DNA of 61,023 nt, from the IMG/VR virus record IMGVR_UViG_3300042554_000484, positions 1 to 61,023 of that record; one strand, 5' to 3'. The stretch is from a virus. The notes under the pieces are model-generated. The model ran no database searches. It was given only the letters and a program-made list of their open reading frames with translations, and was not told the DNA's origin. The number at the start of each line of letters is the position of its first letter. Position 1 is the first letter of the stretch. Shown piece by piece: positions 7,307 to 20,811 of the stretch. A program made the translations under genes and the position numbers.

Positions 7307-7729
7307 TCAGGTCAGGTCAACCCACAGGTAACGGAACGTAGCCGCCGCCTCGTTGATCGCAGAAGCAGTGGCGTTCACCGCGTACACCGTGACCGTGTTC
7401 GTAGCCGTGACCGCAGCCCCAGCGAACACAAGACCCGTTGTCAGCGCGGGAGGATTGACAACCACCACGTCACCGGCGGCAGCGCCCGTGACCGTGATCG
7501 TTCCCGATCCCGTCTCGCCGGCAGCGATCTCGGCGAAGTCCACCGAACCCGTGCCAGTAGCGATCTTCTTGATGACGGATCCCGAAGATCCGACAGCGAG
7601 CGTGCCCGCTGTCAGATCACCGGTCACCGTGGCGTCGTCACCGACCGTGAGGTCATCGGTAGCGACCACGTCATCGTCAGCGTGTAGCCGGCCGACAAGG
7701 GCCTCTCCCTGAGTGAGACGGTTAGACAT
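7307..7729 (-). CDS. Putative head fibre / capsid-associated protein
   Basis: 140 aa. It starts MSNRLTQGEALVGRLHADDD, then a Thr/Val/Asp-rich repeat (DDLTVGDDATVTGDLTAG) typical of beta-helical fibre shafts, then a globular beta domain. Its ATG overlaps the capsid stop, so it is coupled to capsid translation. A capsid-attached fibre is the best guess; a decoration protein is the alternative. Confidence 0.5.
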   Translation of the reverse strand: MSNRLTQGEALVGRLHADDDVVATDDLTVGDDATVTGDLTAGTLAVGSSGSVIKKIATGTGSVDFAEIAAGETGSGTITVTGAAAGDVVVVNPPALTTGLVFAGAAVTATNTVTVYAVNATASAINEAAATFRYLWVDLT

Positions 7730-8706
7730 CAGGCCACCGCTGTGTTGAAGTAGACACCGAGGTCGCTGGACACGACCTTGTTGTCGAACGCAACCTCAGC
7801 CTCGACACGATCCGCCTTGAGGGCGTCCATGCGAATCTGAGAGGTGCCGACCGTCTGGCCGAGGCCACCCGACACACCAGTCCACGAGAAGATGTAGCCG
7901 GCGGACGGGGTGAGCAGGCCGGGGTTCGGGGCGACGTGGCCGAGCCACGCAACCTTGCCCACGTTGAACGAGTAAGCGCCAGTGGCACCCTCGTTGTTCG
8001 TGGCCCGGATCGACTTGGCGACGAGCACGCGGTCCACCTCGAACATGCGGGCGAGCATGTCGCTCGTCACCACAGAAGAAGAGGTGTACTTGATGCGGTC
8101 GACGATGTCGGGGTGATGACGCAACTTGCGGAACGTCTCGTACCCGAGGACGAGGGTGTTGGCCTCGAAGCCCGTGGTCGAGAGGATCTGCGCCTTGCCG
8201 GTCTCAACATTCTCAATCGGATCGGAGTTGGCGTAGTCGCTCCACTGCTTGAACTCGTCCGTGGAGGGAGCGCCGGCAACACCGGTGTAGTCCTTGCCCC
8301 AGACCGAAGTGGTCATGTAGTCGGACACGAACTGGACCTCGCGACGGAGCAGGAGACGCTGCGTCACGAACTCGGCAGCCTCACGAAGCGGGTTCAGCGG
8401 GCTGTCCGCGTTCGCCTTCGTCTGATCGCCGACATCCTTGTGGAACGCCCACACGTCAGCCGAGTACGTCGCGGTGCTCAGGTTGTAGCCCGAGCCAGCC
8501 GACTCGGTTGCGTCGGCGCGGCGCTGGGCCTCGTCGCGGAACCAGTCGTTCTTCGTGTAGACGAAATACTTGTCCGACTTCTTGTCCACCGGGACAACCG
8601 GGAAGACCTTGTCGGCGATGAAGTTCTCCGACTTCTGCATGTACGCGACCGAGATGTTGGTCAGGATCGCGTCGATGTGAACATTGTTCACGTTCGGCTG
8701 TGCCAT
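7729..8706 (-). CDS. Major capsid protein (HK97 fold)
   Basis: 325 aa. It forms the head shell. Features of the E-like/HK97-fold capsid family: N-terminal NVNNVHIDAILTNISVAY, a spine-helix region ADSPLNPLREAAEFVTQRLL and late ARMFEVDRVLVAKSIRATNN. It lies directly after the decoration and scaffold genes and before a short fibre-like gene. The start ATG at 8706 is preceded by AAGGAGCAGTAACG. There is no obvious N-terminal delta domain, consistent with a separate scaffold. Confidence 0.85.
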   Translation of the reverse strand: MAQPNVNNVHIDAILTNISVAYMQKSENFIADKVFPVVPVDKKSDKYFVYTKNDWFRDEAQRRADATESAGSGYNLSTATYSADVWAFHKDVGDQTKANADSPLNPLREAAEFVTQRLLLRREVQFVSDYMTTSVWGKDYTGVAGAPSTDEFKQWSDYANSDPIENVETGKAQILSTTGFEANTLVLGYETFRKLRHHPDIVDRIKYTSSSVVTSDMLARMFEVDRVLVAKSIRATNNEGATGAYSFNVGKVAWLGHVAPNPGLLTPSAGYIFSWTGVSGGLGQTVGTSQIRMDALKADRVEAEVAFDNKVVSSDLGVYFNTAVA

Positions 8707-9136: not shown

Positions 9137-9949
9137 TCAGCCCTTCTTCTCGGCGAGGTACTCGGTGTAGAGAGCCGGGTCGCTGACGAACACGTCAGAG
9201 AGAGCCTGCTCGAAAGTGGCTGAGGTGCCGTCAGCGACAGCGGCCTTAGCCAGCGACTCCGCCTTGTGGAAAGCGGAGCCAGTATGAACGGGCGTTGAGC
9301 CGATCTCGCTGAAGATGTCAGCGGACTCGACCTTCGCGTTGGCCGCAAGCAGCGTGCTCTCGACCGACTTCGCCAGGGCCTCATCGACCTCGGCAAGGCG
9401 ACGCAGCGCCGGGCCGACCTGATCGGCGTCAAGACCGAGAGCCCCGTAGGTCTCGCGGGCCTTCACGACCGCGTCAGCGTCAGCACGCTCTGCACGCTCC
9501 TTGAGAAGCGTGGCCTCGGCAGCCTCGGCCTTAGCCATGGCCTCCTGCGCCTGCTTCTCCATGACCTCGAACGCCTTACGAACAGACTCAGGCGCAGCCT
9601 TCATCATGTCCTCGTCGTCCTCGGGCTCTTCCTCATCCGAATCGCCACGGGAGGCCATCTCCTTCTCCATATCGGCGATCCGCGACTCGGCAGCGGCGAG
9701 GGCCTTCAGGGCCTCGTCGAGCCGATCCTCGGTGCTCTTCTCCATGTGGCCCTCCTGGGCGTCGGTGGACGGCACCTCCTCTTCGGAGGTGTCAGGTTCC
9801 TCGGTGATCTGCTCCATCGCTGCCACAACAGCGTCAGGGTCGGCCGCCTTCATGACGAGCCACCCCTCGGCAAGGTGAGCAGGATGATCGACGCCGGATG
9901 TCTCTTCGATAGCAAGATTGACCATCTTGCGCGTACGGCGACGCTCCAC
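9137..9949 (-). CDS. Head scaffolding protein
   Basis: 270 aa from a GTG at 9949 with AGGAGG five bases upstream. The N-terminus has IEETSGVDHPAHLAEGWLVM, seen in actinophage head-assembly proteins. The rest is highly charged and helical (long Glu/Ala/Lys stretch around residues 60-170, then SAFHKAESLAKAAV). This is typical of scaffolds that fill the procapsid and are removed by the protease encoded just upstream. Confidence 0.75.
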   Translation of the reverse strand: MERRRTRKMVNLAIEETSGVDHPAHLAEGWLVMKAADPDAVVAAMEQITEEPDTSEEEVPSTDAQEGHMEKSTEDRLDEALKALAAAESRIADMEKEMASRGDSDEEEPEDDEDMMKAAPESVRKAFEVMEKQAQEAMAKAEAAEATLLKERAERADADAVVKARETYGALGLDADQVGPALRRLAEVDEALAKSVESTLLAANAKVESADIFSEIGSTPVHTGSAFHKAESLAKAAVADGTSATFEQALSDVFVSDPALYTEYLAEKKG

Positions 9950-9978
9950 AGATCCTCCTAAACCAGACACGGGCCGCC

Positions 9979-10417: not shown

Positions 10418-11083
10418 TCACTCGGTCTCCTCCAAGTCGACGAACAGTCTCTCGGCGCGTCCCCCAATAGAGTAGCCCCTGATCTTGCCGCCCTTGACTA
10501 ACTCCCACGCCCACGGCTTCCACTTCACGCCGAGGAACACGGTGTTAGCGGGGAACGACACCGGTTCATGTGTGTCCTCACCGGTCGCGGCCTTCTTCAT
10601 CATCGGCACCTGCACCTCGTAAGGCCACGTCATCACCTCGACCCACTCCCCAGCGACCTCATCCCGGTCATGCTGAAGACGGATCCGGCGGTCGCCGCCC
10701 TTGACGTAATCCCACACGGCCTTCTGCAACTCTTGCGCGTCGGTCCACTCAGAGTGGGCGTCGAGACGGTCGGGGATGTACATGGGGCCGAGGGTGAACA
10801 TCTCCTCAGAGACGGCCTTGGACACCTCGAAGTCGCCGACACTCTTCGCCACCTCGGGAGTGAAGGCGTCAACAGCGAACAGGCGGGCCTGCTCCTCGGT
10901 GATCTCTTCGAGGCGCGGGTCACCGTCCACGATGTACAGGGCGAGACGTGGGTAGTCGACCCACTGCTTCTCGACGATGTCCCATAGGTAGGTGTCAAGG
11001 GTCTGGGCTTCGTCGTCTTGCTCCATGCGGAACAGGGCGTAGATGCCTTGCTCGTCGACCTTACCGAACAGTCTGGTAGCCAT
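10418..11083 (-). CDS. XkdF-like prohead protease
   Basis: 221 aa. GPMYIPDRLDAHSEWTDAQE, GDRRIRLQHDRDEVAGEWVE, FPANTVFLGVKWKPWAWELV and KIRGYSIGGRAERL match the XkdF-like/S78-type phage head-maturation protease family (established). Such enzymes cleave scaffold and other head proteins inside the procapsid. Good ATG at 11083 with GGAGAG upstream, and its own promoter element at 11096-11110. It could also process the two multi-domain proteins encoded just upstream (inference). Confidence 0.85.
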   Translation of the reverse strand: MATRLFGKVDEQGIYALFRMEQDDEAQTLDTYLWDIVEKQWVDYPRLALYIVDGDPRLEEITEEQARLFAVDAFTPEVAKSVGDFEVSKAVSEEMFTLGPMYIPDRLDAHSEWTDAQELQKAVWDYVKGGDRRIRLQHDRDEVAGEWVEVMTWPYEVQVPMMKKAATGEDTHEPVSFPANTVFLGVKWKPWAWELVKGGKIRGYSIGGRAERLFVDLEETE

Positions 11084-11095
11084 AACTCTCCTTCT

Positions 11096-11110
11096 ACCCC
11101 CAGTTTAGAC
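11096..11110 (-). promoter_or_regulatory. Promoter element upstream of the protease gene
   Basis: Coding orientation: GTC-TAAACT-GGGGGT. The TAA stop codon of the 11105-13717 gene is the first half of the -10 box TAAACT, so the two signals are fused. Confidence 0.65.
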
Positions 11111-13717
11111 TAGGCCGGCGTCTTGAGCCGTCTGGAACCCCTGGAACAGGGTCGTGCCGATCGACAGCACCGAACCGGACGGCACCGCAATGCTCCGTGC
11201 CATGCGGGTCATGCGGTTGTACGTCTTCCAGCGGGTCCGATTGTCGCGAGACTCACGATATGTCTCGTACTCGGCGTGGATCGGCTCCTTCGCCTTGAGG
11301 GATCCGGGCGTGTGGAACTGCAACTCGAACTTCTGCCCATTCGGGTGAACGGCAGCGACGTTGATCCCCTGGTAGGGGTCGCCTTCCTGCCAGTAGTTCT
11401 TGACTCGCATCTGGTAGCCCTTGGCTTCGAGGTCGCTGATCGTGGCGGACACGCCATCGGTGTAGCCGTCTTCCTCGAAGGTCATGGTGTAGCGCACCAC
11501 GTCGGACATCTTGTCGGCAGTGACCTCGGCGTCGCCGCCGTTCTCGACCTTCTCGTCGTCGATCTTCCGAGCGAGGGACTTCTCCGCCTTCATCCGGTAG
11601 TCGAGACCCTCCATGGTGCCGCCGTTAGCGTTCGCCGTGTCGATCATGTCTTTCGTGATCTCGGGCTCGGCCTCGGCTGCCTTGTCACGAACCCGCTTGG
11701 CCGCTGCGACCACGTTGTCGGGTCGACCGGTGGCCGAGGGGTTGTCGACCGGGTTCAACTTGTAGCCGCCATAAGACGCGCCACCCTCGGGCGCCACCGA
11801 GTCCCCTCCGCCGGCCGAGGATCCACCACCCTTACGGGGGGCATGGCTCGACTGGTCATGTGACCCGTGCTTCTCGACAGGCCAGTTGAGGGTCACCACG
11901 GCACCACCCGGCAGGGAGAACGTGGTCAGGCTGTTGGGCAGGTAGTCGTAGTACAGGGTGTGGCCGTCGAGTGACTTCGAGGTGCGGTTGCGCTTGTCAC
12001 CCGGCCACATGCCGGTGACCTCACGGTGCCGGATCGCGCAGTAGCCCTTGGCCTGCTCGCTGGTCATGTACTTCCCGACCGCAGCCACACAGGCAGTGAA
12101 GTCGCCGCCGGCGCCCCACGAAATCTTGCCCTTGCCACCGCCACGCCAGTAGTCCCGCAGCGCCTCGGGGTTGCCGCGCTTCTCCATCTCGTCCGCGAGG
12201 TAGGCGTAGGAACCGAAGTCGGACAGGTCGTCGTCGTCCATGGTGGACAGCAACTCTTCCTCGTCGACCTCGTCATCGGTCAGTGGCCCGCCCGTGAGCC
12301 ACGCCGAGCAGGATCGTGCCGCAGCGCACTTGAACTGGAACAACTCGCAGTAGCCCAGACCCGCCGCCTCGGCGACATCTTCACCCTCGTCGCTGATGTT
12401 GCCGGCGATGGCATCGACGATCTCTTCCTTCACGTTGAAGGCGGCACAGTTGCCGCAGCGGGTCGTAGACGCCTCATCCGCCGGCACGCCCCACACCTCA
12501 CCGAGACGCTCCCAGTAGTCGCCGGGCTCGTCCGGGTTCATCGGCCCATACAGGTACTCGTCGATGGCGTGCTGCCGGTTCTCAAGGTTGACGTGGATGT
12601 CAGTGATCGCCTCGGGGACGGCACGCTTCTCCACGTCACCGAGCACGGAACGCACCCATGACCGGCCGGGGTCTCCGCCCCACGCATCCCACGCCACACG
12701 CCACGGCGTCGGCTCCCCGTCGTCGAGTTGGGCGTGGTCGCCGCGCTGCTTGCCGTGCCGGGCGAAGTAGGCCCGCATCTTCACCAGCGTGTCCTGGCCG
12801 ACCGTGCCGCCCTCGGCGAGTTGCCTAGCCCGGTTGCGGCCCACTGAGGTGAACCCGTCGCCGGCCTTGCCGTCCTCAATCCACGCCACGGCTCGACGGG
12901 CAGCGGAGCGGACAGCGTCGGGCACCTTGTACGAGTCGGCCTTCTCAAGGGCCCCAATGGACTTCAGGGACGACGCCCGATGCCCCACGACCGTGTCCGT
13001 GGGCCGGAAGCCCTGAGAGGTGAGCCGGTACACGCGGATCAGCACCGCTGGATCCTCTTCCGAGGCGTTCAGGGTGAAAGTGGAGTCGGGCACGTTGACC
13101 TTGCCCTCGGTGACGATCCGCTCGATGCGGCCCCTGGCGGGTCCACCGGATGAGCCCCAGGTGACGAAGTCGTCGACTCGCCATTCCTTCGCCTTAGCGA
13201 ACCGTTCGATCTGGTCGAGACGGGCCTGCGCTTCCTCGCGAGTGTCGTAGGTGCCGAACTCCCGATCCGTGTCCTCGGCCATGACGACGTACTTGCCGTC
13301 CCGCTCGACGATGCGCTTGAGCATGGCTTTCGGCTTCTCGGCGCCCATGATGGAGTCGACGTGGACCGTGTTCACGTTGGGTGACGCCTTGAGGACGTAG
13401 CCGTCGACTGTGAGGAGCACCTGCACGACGCCGCCGGCTTCGAGGGCCTTGGCGAGGGGCTCGGACAGGTCGCCGGGGAAGTCGATGTCGTCGACCGACG
13501 CCACCTCGGCCTCATCGACCACGATCACTGACCGGGACCATTGGTCATCCTCGTGTCCGTGGTCGAGGCCCCGCTTCAGCATCTCCTGCGACACCAGATG
13601 GTGGGCCTGCACCGCAGCCGGGTCATCCACGGCAGAGGCGTCTAGGCGGGTGTGCAGTGCGACTAGGTCGTCGGTGGGGAGAGCGGCCAGCCTGACGGCG
13701 GGGTCGGTCACTGTCAT
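11105..13717 (-). CDS. Multi-domain head-module protein with C-terminal RelA/SpoT-like domain
   Basis: 870 aa, ATG at 13717 (GGAG upstream). Regions in order: unassigned helical N-terminus (1-170); DUF2945/Tudor-like segment (178-255, KEWRVDDFVTWGSSGG); a phage domain with VPDAVRSAARRAVAWIEDG and WDAWGGDPGRSW (265-360); a cysteine cluster C421, C424, C457, C464, C470 resembling a phage HiPIP-like iron-sulfur motif; a GDFTACVAAVGKYMTSEQAK segment (533-577); the tag KHGSHDQSSH (616-625); and a RelA/SpoT-like nucleotidyltransferase domain (about 700-845). That domain has DVVRYT (D739), VKNYWQEGDPYQGINVA, FELQFHT (E798) and HAEYETYRE, a pattern seen in actinobacterial polymorphic toxins. Its place between MuF and protease suggests packaging in the head. 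Catalysis is inferred, not shown. Confidence 0.7.
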   Translation of the reverse strand: MTVTDPAVRLAALPTDDLVALHTRLDASAVDDPAAVQAHHLVSQEMLKRGLDHGHEDDQWSRSVIVVDEAEVASVDDIDFPGDLSEPLAKALEAGGVVQVLLTVDGYVLKASPNVNTVHVDSIMGAEKPKAMLKRIVERDGKYVVMAEDTDREFGTYDTREEAQARLDQIERFAKAKEWRVDDFVTWGSSGGPARGRIERIVTEGKVNVPDSTFTLNASEEDPAVLIRVYRLTSQGFRPTDTVVGHRASSLKSIGALEKADSYKVPDAVRSAARRAVAWIEDGKAGDGFTSVGRNRARQLAEGGTVGQDTLVKMRAYFARHGKQRGDHAQLDDGEPTPWRVAWDAWGGDPGRSWVRSVLGDVEKRAVPEAITDIHVNLENRQHAIDEYLYGPMNPDEPGDYWERLGEVWGVPADEASTTRCGNCAAFNVKEEIVDAIAGNISDEGEDVAEAAGLGYCELFQFKCAAARSCSAWLTGGPLTDDEVDEEELLSTMDDDDLSDFGSYAYLADEMEKRGNPEALRDYWRGGGKGKISWGAGGDFTACVAAVGKYMTSEQAKGYCAIRHREVTGMWPGDKRNRTSKSLDGHTLYYDYLPNSLTTFSLPGGAVVTLNWPVEKHGSHDQSSHAPRKGGGSSAGGGDSVAPEGGASYGGYKLNPVDNPSATGRPDNVVAAAKRVRDKAAEAEPEITKDMIDTANANGGTMEGLDYRMKAEKSLARKIDDEKVENGGDAEVTADKMSDVVRYTMTFEEDGYTDGVSATISDLEAKGYQMRVKNYWQEGDPYQGINVAAVHPNGQKFELQFHTPGSLKAKEPIHAEYETYRESRDNRTRWKTYNRMTRMARSIAVPSGSVLSIGTTLFQGFQTAQDAGLV
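11843..11872 (-). repeat. His-rich tag, copy 5 (KHGSHDQSSH)
   Basis: Encodes KHGSHDQSSH, followed by a Gly/Ser-rich linker and then the RelA/SpoT-like domain. Same motif as the four copies in the 14196-17276 protein. Confidence 0.9.
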
Positions 13718-13744
13718 TAGTCCTCCGGGCTCGATCCTCCTAGG

Positions 13745-13957
13745 TTACCGCTCGACAGGCTCCTGGCCGGGGCTTGGCAGTAGCGCATATGCCATAACGT
13801 CGATGAGGATCTCGCCGTAGATGTCAGTGGCGTCTTCGAGTTTCTGCCCGGCCTTCACTTCGCGCTCCATCACGTCCCAGAACTCGGGGGGTGCCTGATC
13901 GTAGGCGACGGCCTTGAGGGCGGCGATGACTTCGAGGTCTTTCTCCTGCTCGGTCAC
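13745..13957 (-). CDS. Small acidic protein of the head operon
   Basis: 70 aa from a GTG at 13957 overlapping the upstream stop (GTGA). It is acidic and helical (QEKDLEVIAALKAVAYDQAP). No family recognised. Coupled to the next small gene, between the two giant head-module genes; an assembly or inhibitor role for one of those proteins is possible but speculative. Confidence 0.6.
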   Translation of the reverse strand: MTEQEKDLEVIAALKAVAYDQAPPEFWDVMEREVKAGQKLEDATDIYGEILIDVMAYALLPSPGQEPVER

Positions 13958-14151
13958 TTGACTCTCCGGTAGTACGGGGACTGGAAGACGGCCTCTTGCT
14001 CCTCCGGCGTCATCTTGTCGAACTCGTCGGCGAAGGCGTACATCTCGGGTAGGGCTTCGCGCATGGCCTGCTCATACTCGGTGTCGCTGGCGGTCTCGGG
14101 CAGGGCGTCATAGACCTTCTCCGAGGCTGCGAGGATCTTATCTACGTTCAT
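13954..14151 (-). CDS. Small acidic helical protein of the head operon
   Basis: 65 aa. The ATG at 14151 has AGGGAAG upstream; an earlier in-frame start lacks one. MNVDKILAASEKVYDALPET and the following acidic helices (ALPEMYAFADEFDKMTPEEQ) show no known family. It has its own promoter element at 14174-14190. Confidence 0.65.
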   Translation of the reverse strand: MNVDKILAASEKVYDALPETASDTEYEQAMREALPEMYAFADEFDKMTPEEQEAVFQSPYYRRVK

Positions 14152-14173
14152 GGTCTTCCCTCCTTCCATACTC

Positions 14174-14190
14174 TAACCCCCGTTATGATA
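14174..14190 (-). promoter_or_regulatory. Promoter element upstream of 13954-14151
   Basis: Coding orientation: GTGG-TATCAT-AACGGGGGTTA. The -10-like TATCAT precedes the conserved GGGGGTT block of this phage's promoter family. It lies just before the stop of the 14196-17276 gene's end. Confidence 0.6.
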
Positions 14191-14195
14191 CCACG

Positions 14196-17100
14196 TTAGT
14201 CGAACAGGGTTTGCTGCCCAGGAATCTGCGGCTCAGACGGAGCCCCAGCAGCCGCCTCAGTCTCCGTAGTCGACCGCCTCGGCCCGGAGGGGCTCAACTC
14301 CTTGATCCCATACCAATCCGTGCCCAGCAACGCCTCCTTGCCCGGCCAGGTAGCGGCACCATCGACGAAGCCCCACGACGCCACCTCGCGGGGGCTCGGA
14401 TAGTCAGGATCCGATGTCGGTAGATCGAGCCGCGCCCGCAGGCTCCTACCCGACCGCTCAACCGAGCCTGGAAGCGCACCGCTATCGAGCACCTCATCGA
14501 ACTGGTACTTGACTGAACTGGTCGCCCCACCGGTACGCGCCCAGTCGAAGCCCTGCCTCGCCCACGCGAACCCACCCACGTCGAGGGCGGCGTGGACATG
14601 CACGTCGGTGATGCCGTGTGAGATGTAGTAGTCCTCTGCCCGCTTATTGAAGACCTTGGCGAACCCGGTGCCCTGGTACTCCTCGTCGATTCGGAGGAGT
14701 TCGTGGCTTACAGCCACTCTGCCGTTGTCGTCAACGAAGAAGCGTCGCTGGAACTCGCCGGCCCAGTCTCCGTTCTCGGTGTAGATCGTGCCGGTGACAT
14801 CGACGTGGTTCTCGCCCCAGTAACGCTCGACAGTCACATCCCCGACCTCGGCTTGTAGCCGGACGACTCGGCCATCGGGTGTCATGCCCTCGTGGCCTAT
14901 CCCGTAGACCTCGTTGAAAGCGTCGGTGTCTAACCCCTCTAGATCGGATTGCCGCATCTCGTCACCGTAGTCAGCGACGTAGAGGTCCAAGTCGCTTTCC
15001 ATGCGTGCTTCGAGGCGCTCGTCGAACTCTTGCTGGTAGGTGTTGCCCATGAGGGGCTCTTCATAGTCTGGGTCGTCACTGCGATCTACCCAGCCCTCGT
15101 CTGCCATCTCCTCGGCGACTGCATCGCGTGCGCCTTCCTCAATAACATCGGCATATTCGTCGCGGACTCGCTCACGCAACGCATCATCATCCATGCCGCC
15201 AGCGGCACCGACCTCCAACACGTCACGGCCCGGCCCCACGTTAGCCATCGCGTCGATGTCTTTCTGCCGAGCGCCCCAACCCGACGACGCCCCACCGCCA
15301 CCACGACCATGCGACTTCTGATCATGCGCCCCGCCGAGATGCTTCCGCAGAGACTTATCCATCCACGACGGCCTGCCGTACTTCTCGTAGTAAGACTCCC
15401 GCAGGCTACGAGCCTCATCGTCAGTGAAGCCCCAACGCTTCTTCCGCTTGATCCCCACCCGTTCCGCAACCCGAGTGATACGCCGCTCCACACGTCCCAT
15501 CGCCGAACCGAGGCGCCGCGCCAAAGGCGATTCCGGCAAGTTGAGATCCGAATAGTCACCTGTCACAAGGGCCTGAGCGATAGCCTCACGCTGATCTTCG
15601 TATTCTTCCTGCCACGTCTTACCGCCGCCGCGCCTGGAACTAGGTTCATCCGTGTCGAAGTTACTGGTGAACGTGCCACCACCTGACGGCGTGTACCGGC
15701 CCGGCACGCCACGCAACTCGTCAGCCGCAGACGACCCGCCACCACGACGGCCATGTGACGACTGATCGTGTGAGCCGTGCTTTAGGACTGGTCGGAGGCC
15801 GGGCTCGAAGGCGACGACGATTCCTCGCCCGCGAACTTCGCCCACAGAGTCTTTGCGTACTCGTCGATCTCCGCGTCCGTCATCTTCGACAGGTCCGGCA
15901 GTTTCACTACCTGCAACGGCCTTTCCGACTGCTCCTGTGCCACCGGTATCTATCTCCTCGAAGTTGGCTACGTCCCAAATGCTGATCTGGTCCCGCTTAC
16001 GTCCCGCGTCGATAGCGGTGTCACGGTCCATGATGTTCTCGGACACGTCGAGATACACCTTGCCGTCCGCCTGATTGTGCCACAACCCCAGATAGGAGCC
16101 CTCGGACAACTCGCGGTTGGACTTCATGAAAGAGCCCAACGCCTCGGGGCCGCGCTCCGGGTCGTAGAACTCGTCGGCGTCCATGATGGCGCCCTTGCTG
16201 CCGCCCATGGCGACCATGAAGCCCTTAGTGGGTTCGGATCCGTCGACCATGTTGACGGAGAGGCCGCCGTTAGCGCGGACCCTTTCGACGATGGATTGTG
16301 CGACGGTGCCGTCGAGTTTCAGGCTTGATCCTCCGCCGCCTCGGCGACCGTGTGAGGACTGGTCGTGGCTGCCGTGCTTCAGTACGGGGCGCAGCCCAGG
16401 CTCGAACGCCACGAGCACCGACTTCGCTATCGGCTTCACCGCAGTAGGCGGGACAGCGGGATCGAAAGTGTCGAGGATGATGACACGCTCGAACTCGTCA
16501 TCGCCGGCTGCCTTTGTCACGCCCGTTCCCCAGTTGTATCTCCCAGCGAAGTATGTCGACGCCGGGTTCGTGGTGGATCCACCAGTCAGGGACCATTCTG
16601 CCCAAGACTCGGCCAAATGCTCGTAATCATTGAATCTACCGTAGGTACTAAGCGCGTCCATGCCGCCGTTGTCCCGTAGCGCATAGTAGTCGTCGCCGAT
16701 CTGACGGTTGCTGCGCTTGTCGGTGACGTGGCCGTACTCGTGCGTGACAACATACTTCACTTGGCTTACCGTCTGCGCGGAAGGCATCGAATAGCCTTCT
16801 TCGCGGTTGATCAACTTGGCGCCTTGCGCGTATTCCGGGCGCATGTTTATCTGCTTCTCGCCTCGTAGTACGAACGCTTTAGTTGAGTCCTGCACGATGT
16901 CAGCGTTATCGCGGAAGGGCGCGTTACTGAACACTACCGTCAAGCCGCTGACGGGAACCTGCGACTGGCAAGTGTTGAGCGCCTCCATGGTGTCGCGCAT
17001 GGCTGCCGCGTCGGGCTCGCCACCGCCGAGCAACTCGACTCGCACTCGTGAGCCGTTAGGTCCGGTGTATTCGGTTGTCCTATCAGTGAAGTCGTCGGCT

Positions 17101-17276
17101 AGGTCTCCGGCCCGCTGCGGATCGTTGGGGTACTGCCCACTGAACCGGGCTAGGTAGTCGGCGCGGATGTCATCGCGGCTACGCTGCGCCCAGCCCTCGG
17201 GAAGATCAGATGTCCCGCCCTTGTGCGGGTTATGCGACGCCTGATTATGAGACCCATGCTTGACAACCGTGTCCAT
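14196..17276 (-). CDS. Four-module head-cargo polyprotein: zincin, unknown domain, basic region, GNAT
   Basis: About 1026 aa; the ATG at 17276 overlaps the MuF stop (TGATG). Four modules each follow a His-rich tag (tags near residues 7, 301, 500 and 646). Module 1 (20-260) is a zincin metallopeptidase with HEYGH at about 180 and a downstream LAESWAEW offering a Glu ligand. Module 2 (320-445) has VNMVDGSEPTKGFMVAMGG and DQISIWDVANFEEI, seen in actinobacterial mobile-element polyvalent proteins. Module 3 (515-645) is Arg-rich and helical. Module 4 (660-1027) includes a GNAT acetyltransferase core with LLRIDEEYQGTGFAKVF and HAALDVGGFAWARQGFDWA. The segment VAFEPGLRPVLKHGSHDQSS is duplicated before modules 2 and 3. 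Packaging and injection with the DNA is my inference. Confidence 0.75.
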   Translation of the reverse strand: MDTVVKHGSHNQASHNPHKGGTSDLPEGWAQRSRDDIRADYLARFSGQYPNDPQRAGDLADDFTDRTTEYTGPNGSRVRVELLGGGEPDAAAMRDTMEALNTCQSQVPVSGLTVVFSNAPFRDNADIVQDSTKAFVLRGEKQINMRPEYAQGAKLINREEGYSMPSAQTVSQVKYVVTHEYGHVTDKRSNRQIGDDYYALRDNGGMDALSTYGRFNDYEHLAESWAEWSLTGGSTTNPASTYFAGRYNWGTGVTKAAGDDEFERVIILDTFDPAVPPTAVKPIAKSVLVAFEPGLRPVLKHGSHDQSSHGRRGGGGSSLKLDGTVAQSIVERVRANGGLSVNMVDGSEPTKGFMVAMGGSKGAIMDADEFYDPERGPEALGSFMKSNRELSEGSYLGLWHNQADGKVYLDVSENIMDRDTAIDAGRKRDQISIWDVANFEEIDTGGTGAVGKAVAGSETAGPVEDDGRGDRRVRKDSVGEVRGRGIVVAFEPGLRPVLKHGSHDQSSHGRRGGGSSAADELRGVPGRYTPSGGGTFTSNFDTDEPSSRRGGGKTWQEEYEDQREAIAQALVTGDYSDLNLPESPLARRLGSAMGRVERRITRVAERVGIKRKKRWGFTDDEARSLRESYYEKYGRPSWMDKSLRKHLGGAHDQKSHGRGGGGASSGWGARQKDIDAMANVGPGRDVLEVGAAGGMDDDALRERVRDEYADVIEEGARDAVAEEMADEGWVDRSDDPDYEEPLMGNTYQQEFDERLEARMESDLDLYVADYGDEMRQSDLEGLDTDAFNEVYGIGHEGMTPDGRVVRLQAEVGDVTVERYWGENHVDVTGTIYTENGDWAGEFQRRFFVDDNGRVAVSHELLRIDEEYQGTGFAKVFNKRAEDYYISHGITDVHVHAALDVGGFAWARQGFDWARTGGATSSVKYQFDEVLDSGALPGSVERSGRSLRARLDLPTSDPDYPSPREVASWGFVDGAATWPGKEALLGTDWYGIKELSPSGPRRSTTETEAAAGAPSEPQIPGQQTLFD
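15309..15344 (-). repeat. His-rich tag, copy 4 (KHLGGAHDQKSH)
   Basis: Variant tag KHLGGAHDQKSHGRGGGG immediately before the acidic/GNAT module. It keeps the H-D-Q-x-S-H core and the glycine linker. Confidence 0.85.
15753..15782 (-). repeat. His-rich tag, copy 3 (KHGSHDQSSH)
   Basis: Identical to copy 2 over the tag and the preceding VAFEPGLRPVL, showing a recent intragenic duplication of the linker. Confidence 0.9.
16350..16379 (-). repeat. His-rich tag, copy 2 (KHGSHDQSSH)
   Basis: Precedes the second module of the polyprotein and follows VAFEPGLRPVL. The tag is followed by GRRGGGGSS. Confidence 0.9.
17232..17261 (-). repeat. His-rich tag, copy 1 (KHGSHNQASH)
   Basis: Slightly divergent first copy, near the N-terminus and directly before the zincin module. 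Confidence 0.9.
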
Positions 17277-18373
17277 CACACAGCCTCATCCATCAGACGC
17301 AACTCCGCAAGCCACCTATCCATGTCCTGCGACGGCAAACCAGTAAGCCCGCGAGACGGCGGAATCAACACAGCCGTACACCGACAATGCGGATGCGCCG
17401 GCGGCATCGTATGACCAGTCGGGAACGCAGCGTTCCACTGCACTCGCTTCCCACTCAACGACGAACACACGTCACACGGCTTCCCACGCCGAGACGCCGA
17501 AGGAGCCACAAGCCACTCCTTCTGCGACGACCCATCCAACAGGCCCGTCTTGTACGACGCATCCCACGAAGTCTGTCGCGCCATGTTCTGCGCCAACTGC
17601 AACTCCGTGCGGGCAATCATCTCCGCCCTACGCCGAATCAGCCTGTCCCGGTACGTCTTGGTCATCACGTCGGCCTTGGCCCGCGCCGCCTCCGGTGTCA
17701 TGCCAGCCCTCACGAGTTGCCGGATCGTCGTCGAATCGTAGTTGTCGACAGCCCTAGCCCAGCGGGTATGCAGGCCCACGGTCTGCCGCAACATGCGGGC
17801 CGTGTCATACGGGGAACGGCCCTGCGCGAGAGAGTCACGAATGACGTACCGAATCGCCGTCCGGTTCGCCCTGTCAATGTCCGTCACCAGCATGGCAGCG
17901 CGAGTGTCGGCGTAATACACGGCCCTCGGATCCACGAAGTCGACGATCACGTTACGGATCGGGTTGATCGCGAACTCGTCGACACCGCCACCATCCGGCA
18001 GGGCGAGGCTCGACGGGACAATGATCCCCGAAGGCAACCGGACACCCGGATCTTGCAGGATCGGCACACCCGGCCGGGCATCATTCCGCACCAGTCGAAC
18101 GAACTCTTCCTGAGCCCGACGAAGGTACGCCTTCTTGAGTTTCTCGGCGAGGCGTGCTTCAAGATAAGCGACCGTTATGTCGTTGATGAACTCTTCCACG
18201 GCACTCGGGTCCAGCGAAGAGATCGCGTTGACGAGCCACTCGACATCGGCCACCAGCCGCGTCTCCCGCAACATGCGGGCGATCTGGTCGGCGATTGCCT
18301 GCTCCGCCGGCGTGAAGGGGTTGCTCGGGCCGTAGCCGCCGGGGCGCCGCTTGCCGCCACGGATGATCGCCAC
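17276..18373 (-). CDS. MuF-like minor head protein
   Basis: 365 aa, GTG at 18373, three bases after the portal stop. It belongs to the phage Mu gpF/SPP1 gp7 family that binds the portal and is present in the head in few copies. Visible features are an N-terminal helical region, a linker (RRRAEMIARTELQLAQNMAR) and the C-terminal metal-binding-like motif PCDVCSSLSGKRV ... PPAHPHCRCTAVLIPP. It starts the coupled run MuF - cargo polyprotein. Confidence 0.85.
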   Translation of the reverse strand: MAIIRGGKRRPGGYGPSNPFTPAEQAIADQIARMLRETRLVADVEWLVNAISSLDPSAVEEFINDITVAYLEARLAEKLKKAYLRRAQEEFVRLVRNDARPGVPILQDPGVRLPSGIIVPSSLALPDGGGVDEFAINPIRNVIVDFVDPRAVYYADTRAAMLVTDIDRANRTAIRYVIRDSLAQGRSPYDTARMLRQTVGLHTRWARAVDNYDSTTIRQLVRAGMTPEAARAKADVMTKTYRDRLIRRRAEMIARTELQLAQNMARQTSWDASYKTGLLDGSSQKEWLVAPSASRRGKPCDVCSSLSGKRVQWNAAFPTGHTMPPAHPHCRCTAVLIPPSRGLTGLPSQDMDRWLAELRLMDEAV

Positions 18374-18376
18374 GGG

Positions 18377-19861
18377 TTACGCCTCTTCGTCGTCGGGCTC
18401 AGGCTCCTCGTCAGCCTTCTTACCCCCACCGAACGGTGCCGCACCACCTGGGAACGCCGGCGCGTCCGGCACAATCCCGGTGCGCTCGGCCAACTGGCGT
18501 TGCGCGTTCGGCAGAGCCAGGAGAGCCTTCTGGTCCTCTTCGCTCATGTCGGATCCGCCGGCGTCCTCGGTGTTGTGGGCAGCCGGGGGCAGGCCCGCAA
18601 GGTCGCGCAGGTGATCTTCGAGGGTGGGGTCGGGCACGAGGATGCCAGCGGCGGTCATCTTGGAGACGAAGTCGCTGATCTCGGTGAGGTCGACATGTGC
18701 CACCTCGGAGTACACGAGGTTGGGGCAGCGGGTCGTGTCCATGCCGTTGAGGCGCATGAGGCGCGGGATGGCGTGGGCGTTGATCGTGTCAGCGATCGTC
18801 TTGCACAGGCTATCCACAGCCATCGTCCACAGGTCCATCTTCGTCGCGCCGAGGGCAAACGAACCAACCCGGTCATGGCCGAGGAGGATGAAGTCGCTGA
18901 GGACCGACATGGCGATGCGCTGGTCATACCGCTGGATAATCTTGTCCGTGTCGAACTGACGTGACCCGCCCGACGACAGCAACGTCAACTCGAAGAGTTT
19001 ATGGCCCGCCTCGTCGTAGATGACGGGGAAGATGACGCCCTCGTTCTCGTTCCGCTTGATCGAGGTGACGATCTCCTTGACAGCGTTCAACACACCGATC
19101 TGCTCCGGGGTTGCTGTCGAGGACAGGTACTCCGGGGGCACATGGGCGACGGGAAGGCCGGCGAGGTCACGCTCGATACCGATCGCTTCGATCTCTTCGA
19201 TGCGGCGCTTGAAGTACCAGGGGCGGTAGGCGTTGCGGAGCAGTGAACGGCCCTCGGGGTTATTCTTCTGCGTCGTCGTGCGGAACAGCAGCGACTTGTC
19301 GATCGGGATGGTGTGCATCCCGCCACCGGACGGGTCGTACTGTGTGTACGCCTGGATTCCGCCGTCCTCGTCGAACTCCCACTTCATCCACGTCTCTTGG
19401 GCGCGGATCGGCCACTTGCGCCAGCCAATCTTGCCGTCATTGAACTTGGACCGCTTCTTCGGATCCTTCTGATCGGGGCCGAGGCGACGCTTGTACACGA
19501 TCTCGTGCCAGGACCAGCCGAACACAACGAAAGACAGGATCGAGGCGAGCGCGGAGTCCCACGAGTCGCTCATGTCATTGAGGCACTCTTCAACGAAACG
19601 GGCCGCCTCAACATCGTCCTCGGCGGGCTCGTCGGTGGCGCCGATCTCATTGAACGGGTCGATGCGCCATTCGAGGCGGGTGATGATCTTCTCGACGGCG
19701 AACAGGAATGAGCCGATGACCGGATCGTTGTCCGACATCTCCCGGTAGGTGCGGGTGCCGAGGCGGCCCCGCAACTGTGTGAGGAACTCCTCGTACACAT
19801 AGCCCGAGGAGCGGCGTAGACCGGTTGAGCCTATCTCGGTGAGATCGGGCCTCGGTGCCAT
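18377..19861 (-). CDS. Portal protein (Mu gp29/DUF935-like)
   Basis: 494 aa, ATG at 19861 with GGGAGAG upstream. It forms the dodecameric DNA-entry ring at one capsid vertex. The order of motifs (MSDNDPVIGSFLFAVEKIIT, LSFVVFGWSWHEIVYK, FKRRIEEIEAIGIERDLAGL, ISDFVSKMTAAGILVPDPTL) fits the gp29/DUF935-type portals. The C-terminus is acidic (DEEPEPDDEEA). MuF follows immediately, as usual. Confidence 0.85.
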   Translation of the reverse strand: MAPRPDLTEIGSTGLRRSSGYVYEEFLTQLRGRLGTRTYREMSDNDPVIGSFLFAVEKIITRLEWRIDPFNEIGATDEPAEDDVEAARFVEECLNDMSDSWDSALASILSFVVFGWSWHEIVYKRRLGPDQKDPKKRSKFNDGKIGWRKWPIRAQETWMKWEFDEDGGIQAYTQYDPSGGGMHTIPIDKSLLFRTTTQKNNPEGRSLLRNAYRPWYFKRRIEEIEAIGIERDLAGLPVAHVPPEYLSSTATPEQIGVLNAVKEIVTSIKRNENEGVIFPVIYDEAGHKLFELTLLSSGGSRQFDTDKIIQRYDQRIAMSVLSDFILLGHDRVGSFALGATKMDLWTMAVDSLCKTIADTINAHAIPRLMRLNGMDTTRCPNLVYSEVAHVDLTEISDFVSKMTAAGILVPDPTLEDHLRDLAGLPPAAHNTEDAGGSDMSEEDQKALLALPNAQRQLAERTGIVPDAPAFPGGAAPFGGGKKADEEPEPDDEEA

Positions 19862-20111: not shown

Positions 20112-20131
20112 CCCCGCTGATACGGGGGTTA
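20112..20131 (-). promoter_or_regulatory. Promoter element upstream of 19925-20095
   Basis: Coding orientation: AACCCCCG-TATCAG-CGGGG. It overlaps the stop codon of the lysozyme gene, so the small gene can be expressed separately. Confidence 0.5.
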
Positions 20132-20716
20132 GTTCTTCTTGGGTGGTGTGGTCTTGCAGGGGTACAGGGCGAGGCCCTGACGGAACGGGGCCATGATCCA
20201 GTTCTCGTGATGCCAACTCGACCAGCCGCCGTACTGTGTGGCGTCGAGGGTGCCGTGCCGGGTCAGTCCCCAGGGCTGCCAGTTGCGGCCCTTGTCGCTC
20301 CACCGGTACACGATCTTCGACTGGCGGTAGGGGTCCATCATCGCGGCCATCGACCACCACGGCTTACCCGAGTGCGCGGAGGCTTGGATCTGCCAGACCC
20401 CATACGCTCCACTAAACCACGGCGAGTCAGCCCCGAGGTTCTGGTGCTTAGACTCGCGCCAGGTGATGGCCCAGGCTTGCTGGTGTGCCCTGCCGGTGAA
20501 GCCGGCCCGGTACAGGATCTTCGCCATGCGGTTCTTGCATGTCCATTCGGGCTTCGGCTTCTTGTCTAGTGCGGCCCGTGCTTCTTGCATAGATTGCTGT
20601 ACAGGTGGCGGGGGTGCCGCTTCGGCGTCGAGGGACGCAGCGAAAGCGAGCGGGATGGTGATGAGGGTCGCGAGGGTGATGTCGCGGATGTTGCGGCCTC
20701 GTGCGGTGAGTCGCAT
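20129..20716 (-). CDS. Secreted lysozyme/transglycosylase-like protein
   Basis: 195 aa from the ATG at 20716. An N-terminal signal peptide (RRGRN-type basic start in MRLTARGRNIRDITLATLIT, then a hydrophobic stretch and SLDAEAAP cleavage-like site) is followed by a proline-rich linker. The lysozyme-like fold has ITWRESKHQ (likely catalytic Glu) and SGAYGVWQIQASAHSG, as in SLT/Rpf-type transglycosylases. It should act on the host wall after Sec export. It is separate from the endolysin cassette at 41-43 kb and is preceded by two tiny membrane peptides. Confidence 0.75.
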   Translation of the reverse strand: MRLTARGRNIRDITLATLITIPLAFAASLDAEAAPPPPVQQSMQEARAALDKKPKPEWTCKNRMAKILYRAGFTGRAHQQAWAITWRESKHQNLGADSPWFSGAYGVWQIQASAHSGKPWWSMAAMMDPYRQSKIVYRWSDKGRNWQPWGLTRHGTLDATQYGGWSSWHHENWIMAPFRQGLALYPCKTTPPKKN

Positions 20717-20730
20717 AGAGGTTCCTTTCG

Positions 20731-20811
20731 TCAGCGTGACTCCCGTGCGAGGAGCCAGACGGCGAGGGCGATGAAGGTCCATCCGGCGAGGATGGACAGG
20801 GCGACTGTCAT
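20731..20811 (-). CDS. 26-aa transmembrane peptide
   Basis: MTVALSILAGWTFIALAVWL and LARESR: a single membrane helix with a basic tail. The ATG overlaps the stop of the preceding peptide (ATGA) and has GAGGTG upstream, so it looks translated. A lysis accessory role beside the secreted lysozyme is a guess. Confidence 0.6.
   Translation of the reverse strand: MTVALSILAGWTFIALAVWLLARESR

What the first reader, a model, noticed from the sequence alone, without database searches (positions are those of the whole stretch)
11105..17276. Two giant modular head proteins with repeated His-rich tags: candidate capsid-packaged effector system
Seen: five copies of K-H-(x)-G-(S/A)-H-(D/N)-Q-x-S-H, four in the 14196-17276 protein and one in 11105-13717. 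They stand before modules that read as a zincin (HEYGH), an actinobacterial mobile-element domain, an Arg-rich region, a GNAT acetyltransferase and a RelA/SpoT-like domain. The block VAFEPGLRPVLKHGSHDQSS is duplicated exactly. Both genes lie between MuF and the prohead protease. Known: MuF-linked proteins are packaged in several phages, and MuF proteins often carry toxin or enzyme domains. Inference: the tag is a processing, metal-binding or portal-docking element, and modules are swapped as cargo units injected with the DNA.
Basis: partly seen in the sequence, partly recalled or inferred. Interest (0 to 1): 0.85.

Follow-up and report, generated by a model that had tools for sequence, protein, structure and literature searches.

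The report
Tag-delimited swappable effector cassettes in phages
A short histidine-rich tag marks the start of each exchangeable effector module in the head-gene region of many uncultured phages, and two otherwise almost identical phages have swapped exactly the pieces that lie between tags, which suggests a general label for cargo that the virus carries in its head and injects.

Summary
Five copies of K-H-(Lx)G-x-H-[DN]-Q-x-[ST]-H lie in P1027 (four) and P870 (one), between MuF and the XkdF-type prohead protease. The tag is not peculiar to this phage. It occurs on one contig among 84,980 prokaryote genomes; a reversed pattern gave none. MuF is in 42/50 tag-bearing records (3/28 random viral contigs), XkdF in 35/50 (0/28). 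In 17 records with both genes, 110 of 118 listed tags lie between them. Behind tags stand zincins, GNATs, alarmone synthetases, ADP-ribosyltransferases and zeta-toxin-like kinases. The strongest new result: relative L245 matches the window at about 95-100% across the head locus, but drops to 35-63% in three modules, with five of six breakpoints at the five tags. Tags are conserved as protein, not DNA, and lie in predicted-disordered linkers. Best explanation: cassette-exchanged polyvalent effectors, each with a short docking or targeting peptide for head packaging and injection. Packaging, docking and injection are inferred. I found no description of the tag, and near-relative isolates examined lack it, so it is dispensable for assembly.

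The parts
17276..18373 (-). MuF minor head protein; its TGA stop overlaps the ATG of P1027 (TGATG)
   Evidence: PF04233 E 2e-10, PHROG head morphogenesis/maturation families; junction read
14196..17279 (-). P1027, polyvalent cargo protein with four tags (zincin, module 2, Arg-rich module 3, GNAT module 4)
17232..17261 (-). tag 1, KHGSHNQASH, residues 7-16 of P1027
   Evidence: pLDDT<50 in model of residues 1-316
16422..17213 (-). module 1, zincin metallopeptidase HEYGHVTD...E (residues 23-286), 47% identical to L245
16332..16412 (-). leader plus tag 2, VAFEPGLRPVLKHGSHDQSSHGRRGGG (tag core 16350-16379)
15825..16331 (-). module 2 (residues 317-485), widespread tag-borne family; 98% identical to L245
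   Evidence: 96 loci, 85 with a tag within 80 aa upstream; L060 homologue matches PLxRFG proteins
15735..15815 (-). leader plus tag 3, exact protein copy of leader plus tag 2 (tag core 15753-15782)
15387..15734 (-). module 3, Arg-rich, poorly conserved (residues 516-631), 43% identical to L245
15309..15344 (-). tag 4, KHLGGAHDQKSH, residues 646-657 of P1027
14199..15296 (-). module 4, helical region plus GNAT acetyltransferase (residues 662-1027), 95% identical to L245
   Evidence: homologous to C-terminus of MuF-type protein of Microbacterium phage Jera; GNAT fold in homologue L238
11105..13717 (-). P870: constant N-terminal part, one tag, alarmone-synthetase module
11915..13717 (-). P870 residues 1-601: TUDOR (PF11160) and phrog_2859/phrog_6439 regions; 97% identical to L245
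11843..11872 (-). tag 5, KHGSHDQSSH, residues 616-625 of P870
11108..11824 (-). RelA/SpoT-homologue module, Apk2/SaEAS-like alarmone synthetase (residues 632-870), 45% identical to L245
   Evidence: PDB 8vx3 E 4.6e-18; about 35% to MuF toxin C-termini of Streptococcus, Pasteurella, Mannheimia phages
10418..11083 (-). XkdF-type prohead protease; no tag
   Evidence: PF14550 E 6.6e-11
18377..19861 (-). portal protein; no tag
   Evidence: PF06074 E 1.6e-36
9137..9970 (-). probable scaffold (by position, between protease and decoration-type protein); no tag
   Evidence: phrog_13547
7729..8706 (-). major capsid protein; no tag
   Evidence: phrog_1005 E 9e-99

Best explanation
P1027 and P870 are head-locus polyvalent effector proteins built from exchangeable cassettes. 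Each cassette is a short disordered leader ending in the tag KH-(Lx)G-x-H-[DN]-Q-x-[ST]-H, followed by one folded effector. SHOWN by sequence: the tag is widespread and almost confined to phages, head-locus-specific, protein-level conserved, about equally conserved at gene starts and internally, and sits at the edges of exchanged modules. INFERRED: the tag is a short linear docking or targeting peptide recognised by a phage-specific component of the assembling head (MuF, portal vertex or scaffold), so that any module behind it is loaded into the procapsid and ejected with the DNA. In multi-tag polypeptides each tag may also be trimmed or give multivalent binding. Because the tag alone would make a protein cargo, modules can be replaced, added or fused without changing the capsid. 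The alarmone synthetase, GNAT and zincin would then act on the new host at the start of infection.
For: Cassette exchange: along about 11 kb of head locus L245 matches the window at about 95-100% except three modules at 35-63%; five of the six edges are the five tags, the sixth is the end of the P870 gene. Across loci, with upstream flank conserved, the flank after a tag is unrelated in 50% of pairs against 8% at interior points (39% v 4% per anchor). Module families follow up to 12 different upstream families. Head association: MuF 42/50 and XkdF 35/50 tag-bearing records v 3/28 and 0/28 random viral contigs; 110 of 118 listed tags in 17 records lie between MuF and XkdF, 7 lie just after XkdF, 1 elsewhere. 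MuF is directly fused to tagged chains in several phages (e.g. L233, 2535 aa, and L237, 1097 aa). Targeting rather than linker: the tag often opens genes 10-40 aa from the start; internal and N-terminal tags score alike (37.1 v 39.7 bits), with 5.6% amino-acid v 42.5% synonymous difference. Phage-specific reader: tags in one phage before unrelated modules are more alike (0.55) than tags before related modules under 40% identity in different phages (0.40). Disordered motif beside folded domains. Almost absent from cellular genomes.
Against: No virion proteomics, and no binding partner identified. An exploratory comparison of tag divergence with scaffold, MuF, portal, protease and capsid divergence did not single one out. 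Within-phage similarity of tags could partly come from gene conversion rather than a shared reader. The reverse switch test (downstream conserved, upstream changed) was not elevated, so exchange is mainly of what follows a tag. Two of 50 tag-bearing records showed none of MuF, XkdF or S78; these may be fragments.
Confidence: 0.55

Rival explanations
1. The tag is a recognition or cleavage site of the XkdF/S78 prohead protease: multi-module polypeptides are cut at the tags during head maturation into single effectors, as a polyprotein, and N-terminal tags are removed like T4 or SPN3US propeptides.
For: Prohead protease (XkdF or S78) is found in 40 of 50 tag-bearing records; tags lie in disordered linkers beside folded domains; internal tags are about as conserved as N-terminal ones; N-terminal propeptides removed by a prohead protease are known in SPN3US (PMC10052503).
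Against: No tag was found in the capsid, scaffold or portal genes of the 20 arrays, which would be expected substrates of such a protease. Single-module genes with an N-terminal tag need no cutting apart. The conserved core (His, Asp, Gln, His, Gly) is longer than the short sites of known prohead proteases (own knowledge).
Confidence: 0.22
2. The tag is only a neutral flexible junction or recombination seam at which modules are joined, without a dedicated partner.
For: Breakpoints fall at tags; Gly-rich or Gly/Ser-rich stretches follow many tags.
Against: DNA of the tag is not conserved (61/81 nt in the identical 27-aa repeat; 42.5% synonymous v 5.6% amino-acid difference), so it is not a DNA-level seam. 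A neutral linker would not keep three His, Gln and Gly, nor stand at the N-terminus of single-module genes.
Confidence: 0.1
3. The tag binds metal or packaged DNA: the three histidines (with the following Arg/Gly-rich stretch) condense the cargo onto DNA or cross-link modules through zinc.
For: Three conserved His with regular spacing; Arg/Gly-rich tails in the window's variant.
Against: In most tags the following residues are S/N-W-A, not basic. The invariant Gln and D/N between the His are unexplained by simple metal binding. Not tested.
Confidence: 0.08
4. The zincin module processes the polyprotein at the tags (autoproteolysis as proposed for polyvalent proteins).
For: P1027 carries a zincin with the HExxH-xx-D signature reported for phage polyvalent peptidases.
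Against: Homologues of this zincin were found in only 27 of the tag-bearing loci, so tags persist where it was not detected. Other unrelated peptidases could be missed.
Confidence: 0.05

Closest known systems
Polyvalent proteins of phages and conjugative elements (Iyer et al. 2017, PMC5512222)
   Same: Several unrelated enzyme domains in one phage polypeptide, including zincin with D three residues after HExxH, GNAT and RelA/SpoT; predicted co-injection; module 2 homologue in L060 resembles PLxRFG proteins of Pseudomonas phages.
   Different: A recurrent peptide tag in front of most modules, exchange breakpoints at the tag, and a fixed MuF-to-XkdF position. The passages found in that paper do not describe such a tag.
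MuF polymorphic toxins, incl. Apk2 (PMC5576092, PMC12226406)
   Same: MuF-linked effector, constant upstream and variable downstream parts; P870's last module is about 35% identical to MuF-toxin alarmone-synthetase domains.
   Different: Up to 19 tags per genome, mostly separate genes; tagged cassettes nearly absent from prokaryote genomes (so rarely prophages); immunity genes not sought.
T4 capsid targeting sequence of internal proteins/Alt and SPN3US propeptides (PMC10052503 and own knowledge)
   Same: Short N-terminal peptide in front of head-packaged proteins, works-like analogy.
   Different: Different sequence; here repeated internally many times per polypeptide and shared by dozens of unrelated domains; packaging not shown.
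Phage P1 DarA/Hdf/DdrB head-packaged proteins (PMC12810830, PMC5512222)
   Same: Proteins carried inside the head that protect phage DNA or act early.
   Different: No KHxxHDQxSH tag reported in what was read; DarA/Hdf are bound to the capsid inner surface at defined sites.

Membership tests
Polyvalent proteins | two or more domains of disparate activity in one polypeptide | tested here: met
   P1027: zincin and GNAT (on a homologue)
Polyvalent proteins | encoded by a phage or mobile element | tested here: met
   IMG/VR virus record with portal, MuF, protease, capsid, terminase and tape measure genes
Polyvalent proteins | delivered into the host with the DNA | not testable with these tools
   needs virion proteomics or infection assay
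MuF polymorphic toxins | MuF domain N-terminal to the toxin in the same polypeptide | tested here: not met
   in the window MuF and P1027 are separate, overlapping genes; fused forms exist in other tag-bearing phages
MuF polymorphic toxins | adjacent immunity gene, temperate phage | not tested
   immunity genes and integrase not searched; tag nearly absent from prokaryote genomes
RelA/SpoT-homologue alarmone synthetases | sequence homology over the synthetase domain incl. catalytic motifs | tested here: met
   8vx3 E 4.6e-18 over 186 aa with RMK..SLARK, VRYT, YQGIN, FELQFHT aligned; activity not tested
T4-type capsid targeting sequence | homologous sequence and proven removal or packaging | not testable with these tools
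   works-like analogy only; packaging and cleavage need experiment

The most novel reading that the evidence does not exclude
KHxxGxHDQxSHG is a general cargo-loading peptide of a large group of uncultured phages: any protein carrying it is loaded into the head and injected, which lets these phages carry arrays of interchangeable effectors marked by up to 19 tags.
Probability: 0.45. Interest if true: 0.92.

Novelty: new variant of a known kind. Interest (0 to 1): 0.8.

Why it matters
Which phage proteins are injected with the DNA is usually unknown and cannot be read from sequence. If the tag is a loading peptide, it gives a sequence handle that lists, for many uncultured phages, the probable injected effectors, including many unnamed families, and makes the loading step testable with one peptide. 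The clean exchange at tags also shows how phages renew early-infection weapons without disturbing the capsid.

Tried and rejected
Tag search in annotated phages by tblastn with 27- and 32-aa consensus queries found nothing credible; such short queries are insensitive, and the phiEap-2 match lies on the strand opposite to its gene and was rejected. Cultured relatives of the same head family (Arthrobacter phages Kovu, Ottawa, Wheelbite; Microbacterium phage ValentiniPuff) have no tag in the portal-to-capsid interval examined, so the tag is not needed for the head. A 114-row alignment for all of P1027 (A3) was discarded because the zincin rows were misplaced; smaller alignments were used instead. 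Tag divergence against head-protein divergence did not single out a partner. Exact-string literature search found no description of the tag, and topic searches found none; this library lacks most subscription papers and preprints. The PDB hit for the tag (7kvb) is chance. Pfam and NCBIfam did not name modules 1-3.
Full report
1. OBSERVATION. The five tags are real, in frame and confined to P1027 and P870. The two leader-tag copies at residues 290-316 and 489-515 are identical over 27 aa but differ at 20 of 81 nucleotides. The flanking genes are portal, MuF, XkdF protease, probable scaffold, a small decoration-type protein and capsid. The MuF stop overlaps the P1027 start (TGATG), and the first tag begins at residue 7.

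2. THE TAG ELSEWHERE. Only one contig among 84,980 prokaryote species genomes carries it, a Nanopelagicales MAG scaffold. From 215 loci, 542 strict tags gave the consensus [VLI]-x-K-H-(L-x)G-x-H-[DN]-Q-x-[ST]-H-G-[SN]-W-A. A profile built from them finds 862 tags in 573 ORFs. In 50 records all matches lie on one strand, up to 19 per record.

3. HEAD LOCUS. MuF is in 42/50 and XkdF in 35/50 tag-bearing records; S78 protease is in five records without XkdF, so 48/50 show at least one of these genes. In 28 contigs picked by an unrelated DNA word the counts are 3 and 0; these were not matched for composition and include shorter contigs. Counting the tags listed by hand against the gene positions, for 17 records with both genes: 110/118 between MuF and XkdF, 7 just after XkdF, 1 elsewhere (G011:41107). 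Complete arrays read portal-MuF-tagged genes-P870-like-XkdF-scaffold-capsid. They share portal (46-70%) and capsid (54-83%, several cut by the locus end) with the window, while MuF is only 27-47% alike.

4. WHAT FOLLOWS THE TAG. Representatives of tag-following modules match ADP-ribosyltransferases, zeta toxin, zincins, GNAT, topoisomerase I and kinase families. Pieces before tags include MuF, XkdF, portal and TUDOR. In the window: a zincin with invariant HExGH...E folding at pLDDT about 95, only weakly like solved zincins; module 2, found in 96 loci with a tag close upstream in 85, the L060 homologue of which matches PLxRFG proteins; an Arg-rich module; a GNAT; and an alarmone synthetase related to 8vx3/SaEAS and to MuF-toxin C-termini.

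5. CASSETTE EXCHANGE. Against L245 the head locus is about 95-100% identical in DNA, except three stretches at 35-63%: zincin, module 3 and alarmone synthetase. Five of their six edges are the five tags, resolved to about 30 aa. Protein identities by module are 47, 98, 43 and 95% in P1027 and 97 then 45% in P870. There are milder dips elsewhere, e.g. 0.73 near 13900, between the two genes. Generally, with the upstream 60 aa conserved, the flank beyond a tag is unrelated in 50% of 1553 pairs (39% per anchor) against 8% (4%) at interior points. About 60% of these pairs come from one upstream family (504/946 switched), but others switch too, e.g. 110/234 and 71/85. The opposite direction is not elevated. 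Module families occur behind up to 12 upstream families.

6. WHY A SIGNAL. Within loci, conserved tag codons differ in amino acid in 5.6% and silently in 42.5%, so selection is on the peptide. Internal and N-terminal tags score alike. Tags of one phage before unrelated modules resemble each other more (0.55) than tags before related modules (<40% identity) in different phages (0.40) or unrelated ones (0.37). Models place all tags examined in segments below pLDDT 50 beside folded domains. Near-relative isolates with the same portal and capsid type lack tags, so the tag belongs to the cargo, not to the shell.

7. MECHANISM AND LIMITS. The best reading is a docking or targeting peptide for head packaging; processing by the prohead protease is the main rival. 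Nothing here shows packaging, injection or enzyme activity. L245 replaces zincin by zincin and synthetase by synthetase, so in that pair exchange is between alleles; exchange between different families rests.

Noticed in passing
L238:5167-7038 and 66 tagged ORFs in related loci: A second recurrent peptide, GP[IV]DxDGDGLxYDGTxRE[KR]PAP (calcium-loop-like), ends most genes with the GNAT module, usually 6-13 aa from the C-terminus.
   Followed up: partly
39 related loci, e.g. L229:14035-14586, L234:13083-13811: A small gene just after XkdF carries a tag followed by a short acidic tail (DDSEGEDSSEP...DDPKYMDTMD) instead of a folded module; its role is unknown.
   Followed up: no
window 17276-18373 and homologues in L224-L243: MuF is much less conserved (27-47%) than portal (46-70%) across phages of this head type, as if it evolved with the cargo.
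   Followed up: partly
window 11915-13717: P870 N-terminal part contains a TUDOR domain, a Cys-rich stretch (CGNCAAF...CELF.FKC) and a DYWRxG domain (phrog_6439); a part of it also lies in a gene of Roseobacter phage CRP-811 annotated as capsid protein.
   Followed up: partly
Arthrobacter phages Kovu, Ottawa, Wheelbite (L289, L290, L292): A gene in the XkdF position is annotated 'RNA ligase' or 'aldolase'; the window's XkdF protease matches the PHROG called 'RNA ligase', so these names may be wrong.
   Followed up: no
window 20129-20782: ORF upstream of the portal looks by eye like a lysozyme or resuscitation-factor-type secreted protein; no PHROG match.
   Followed up: no
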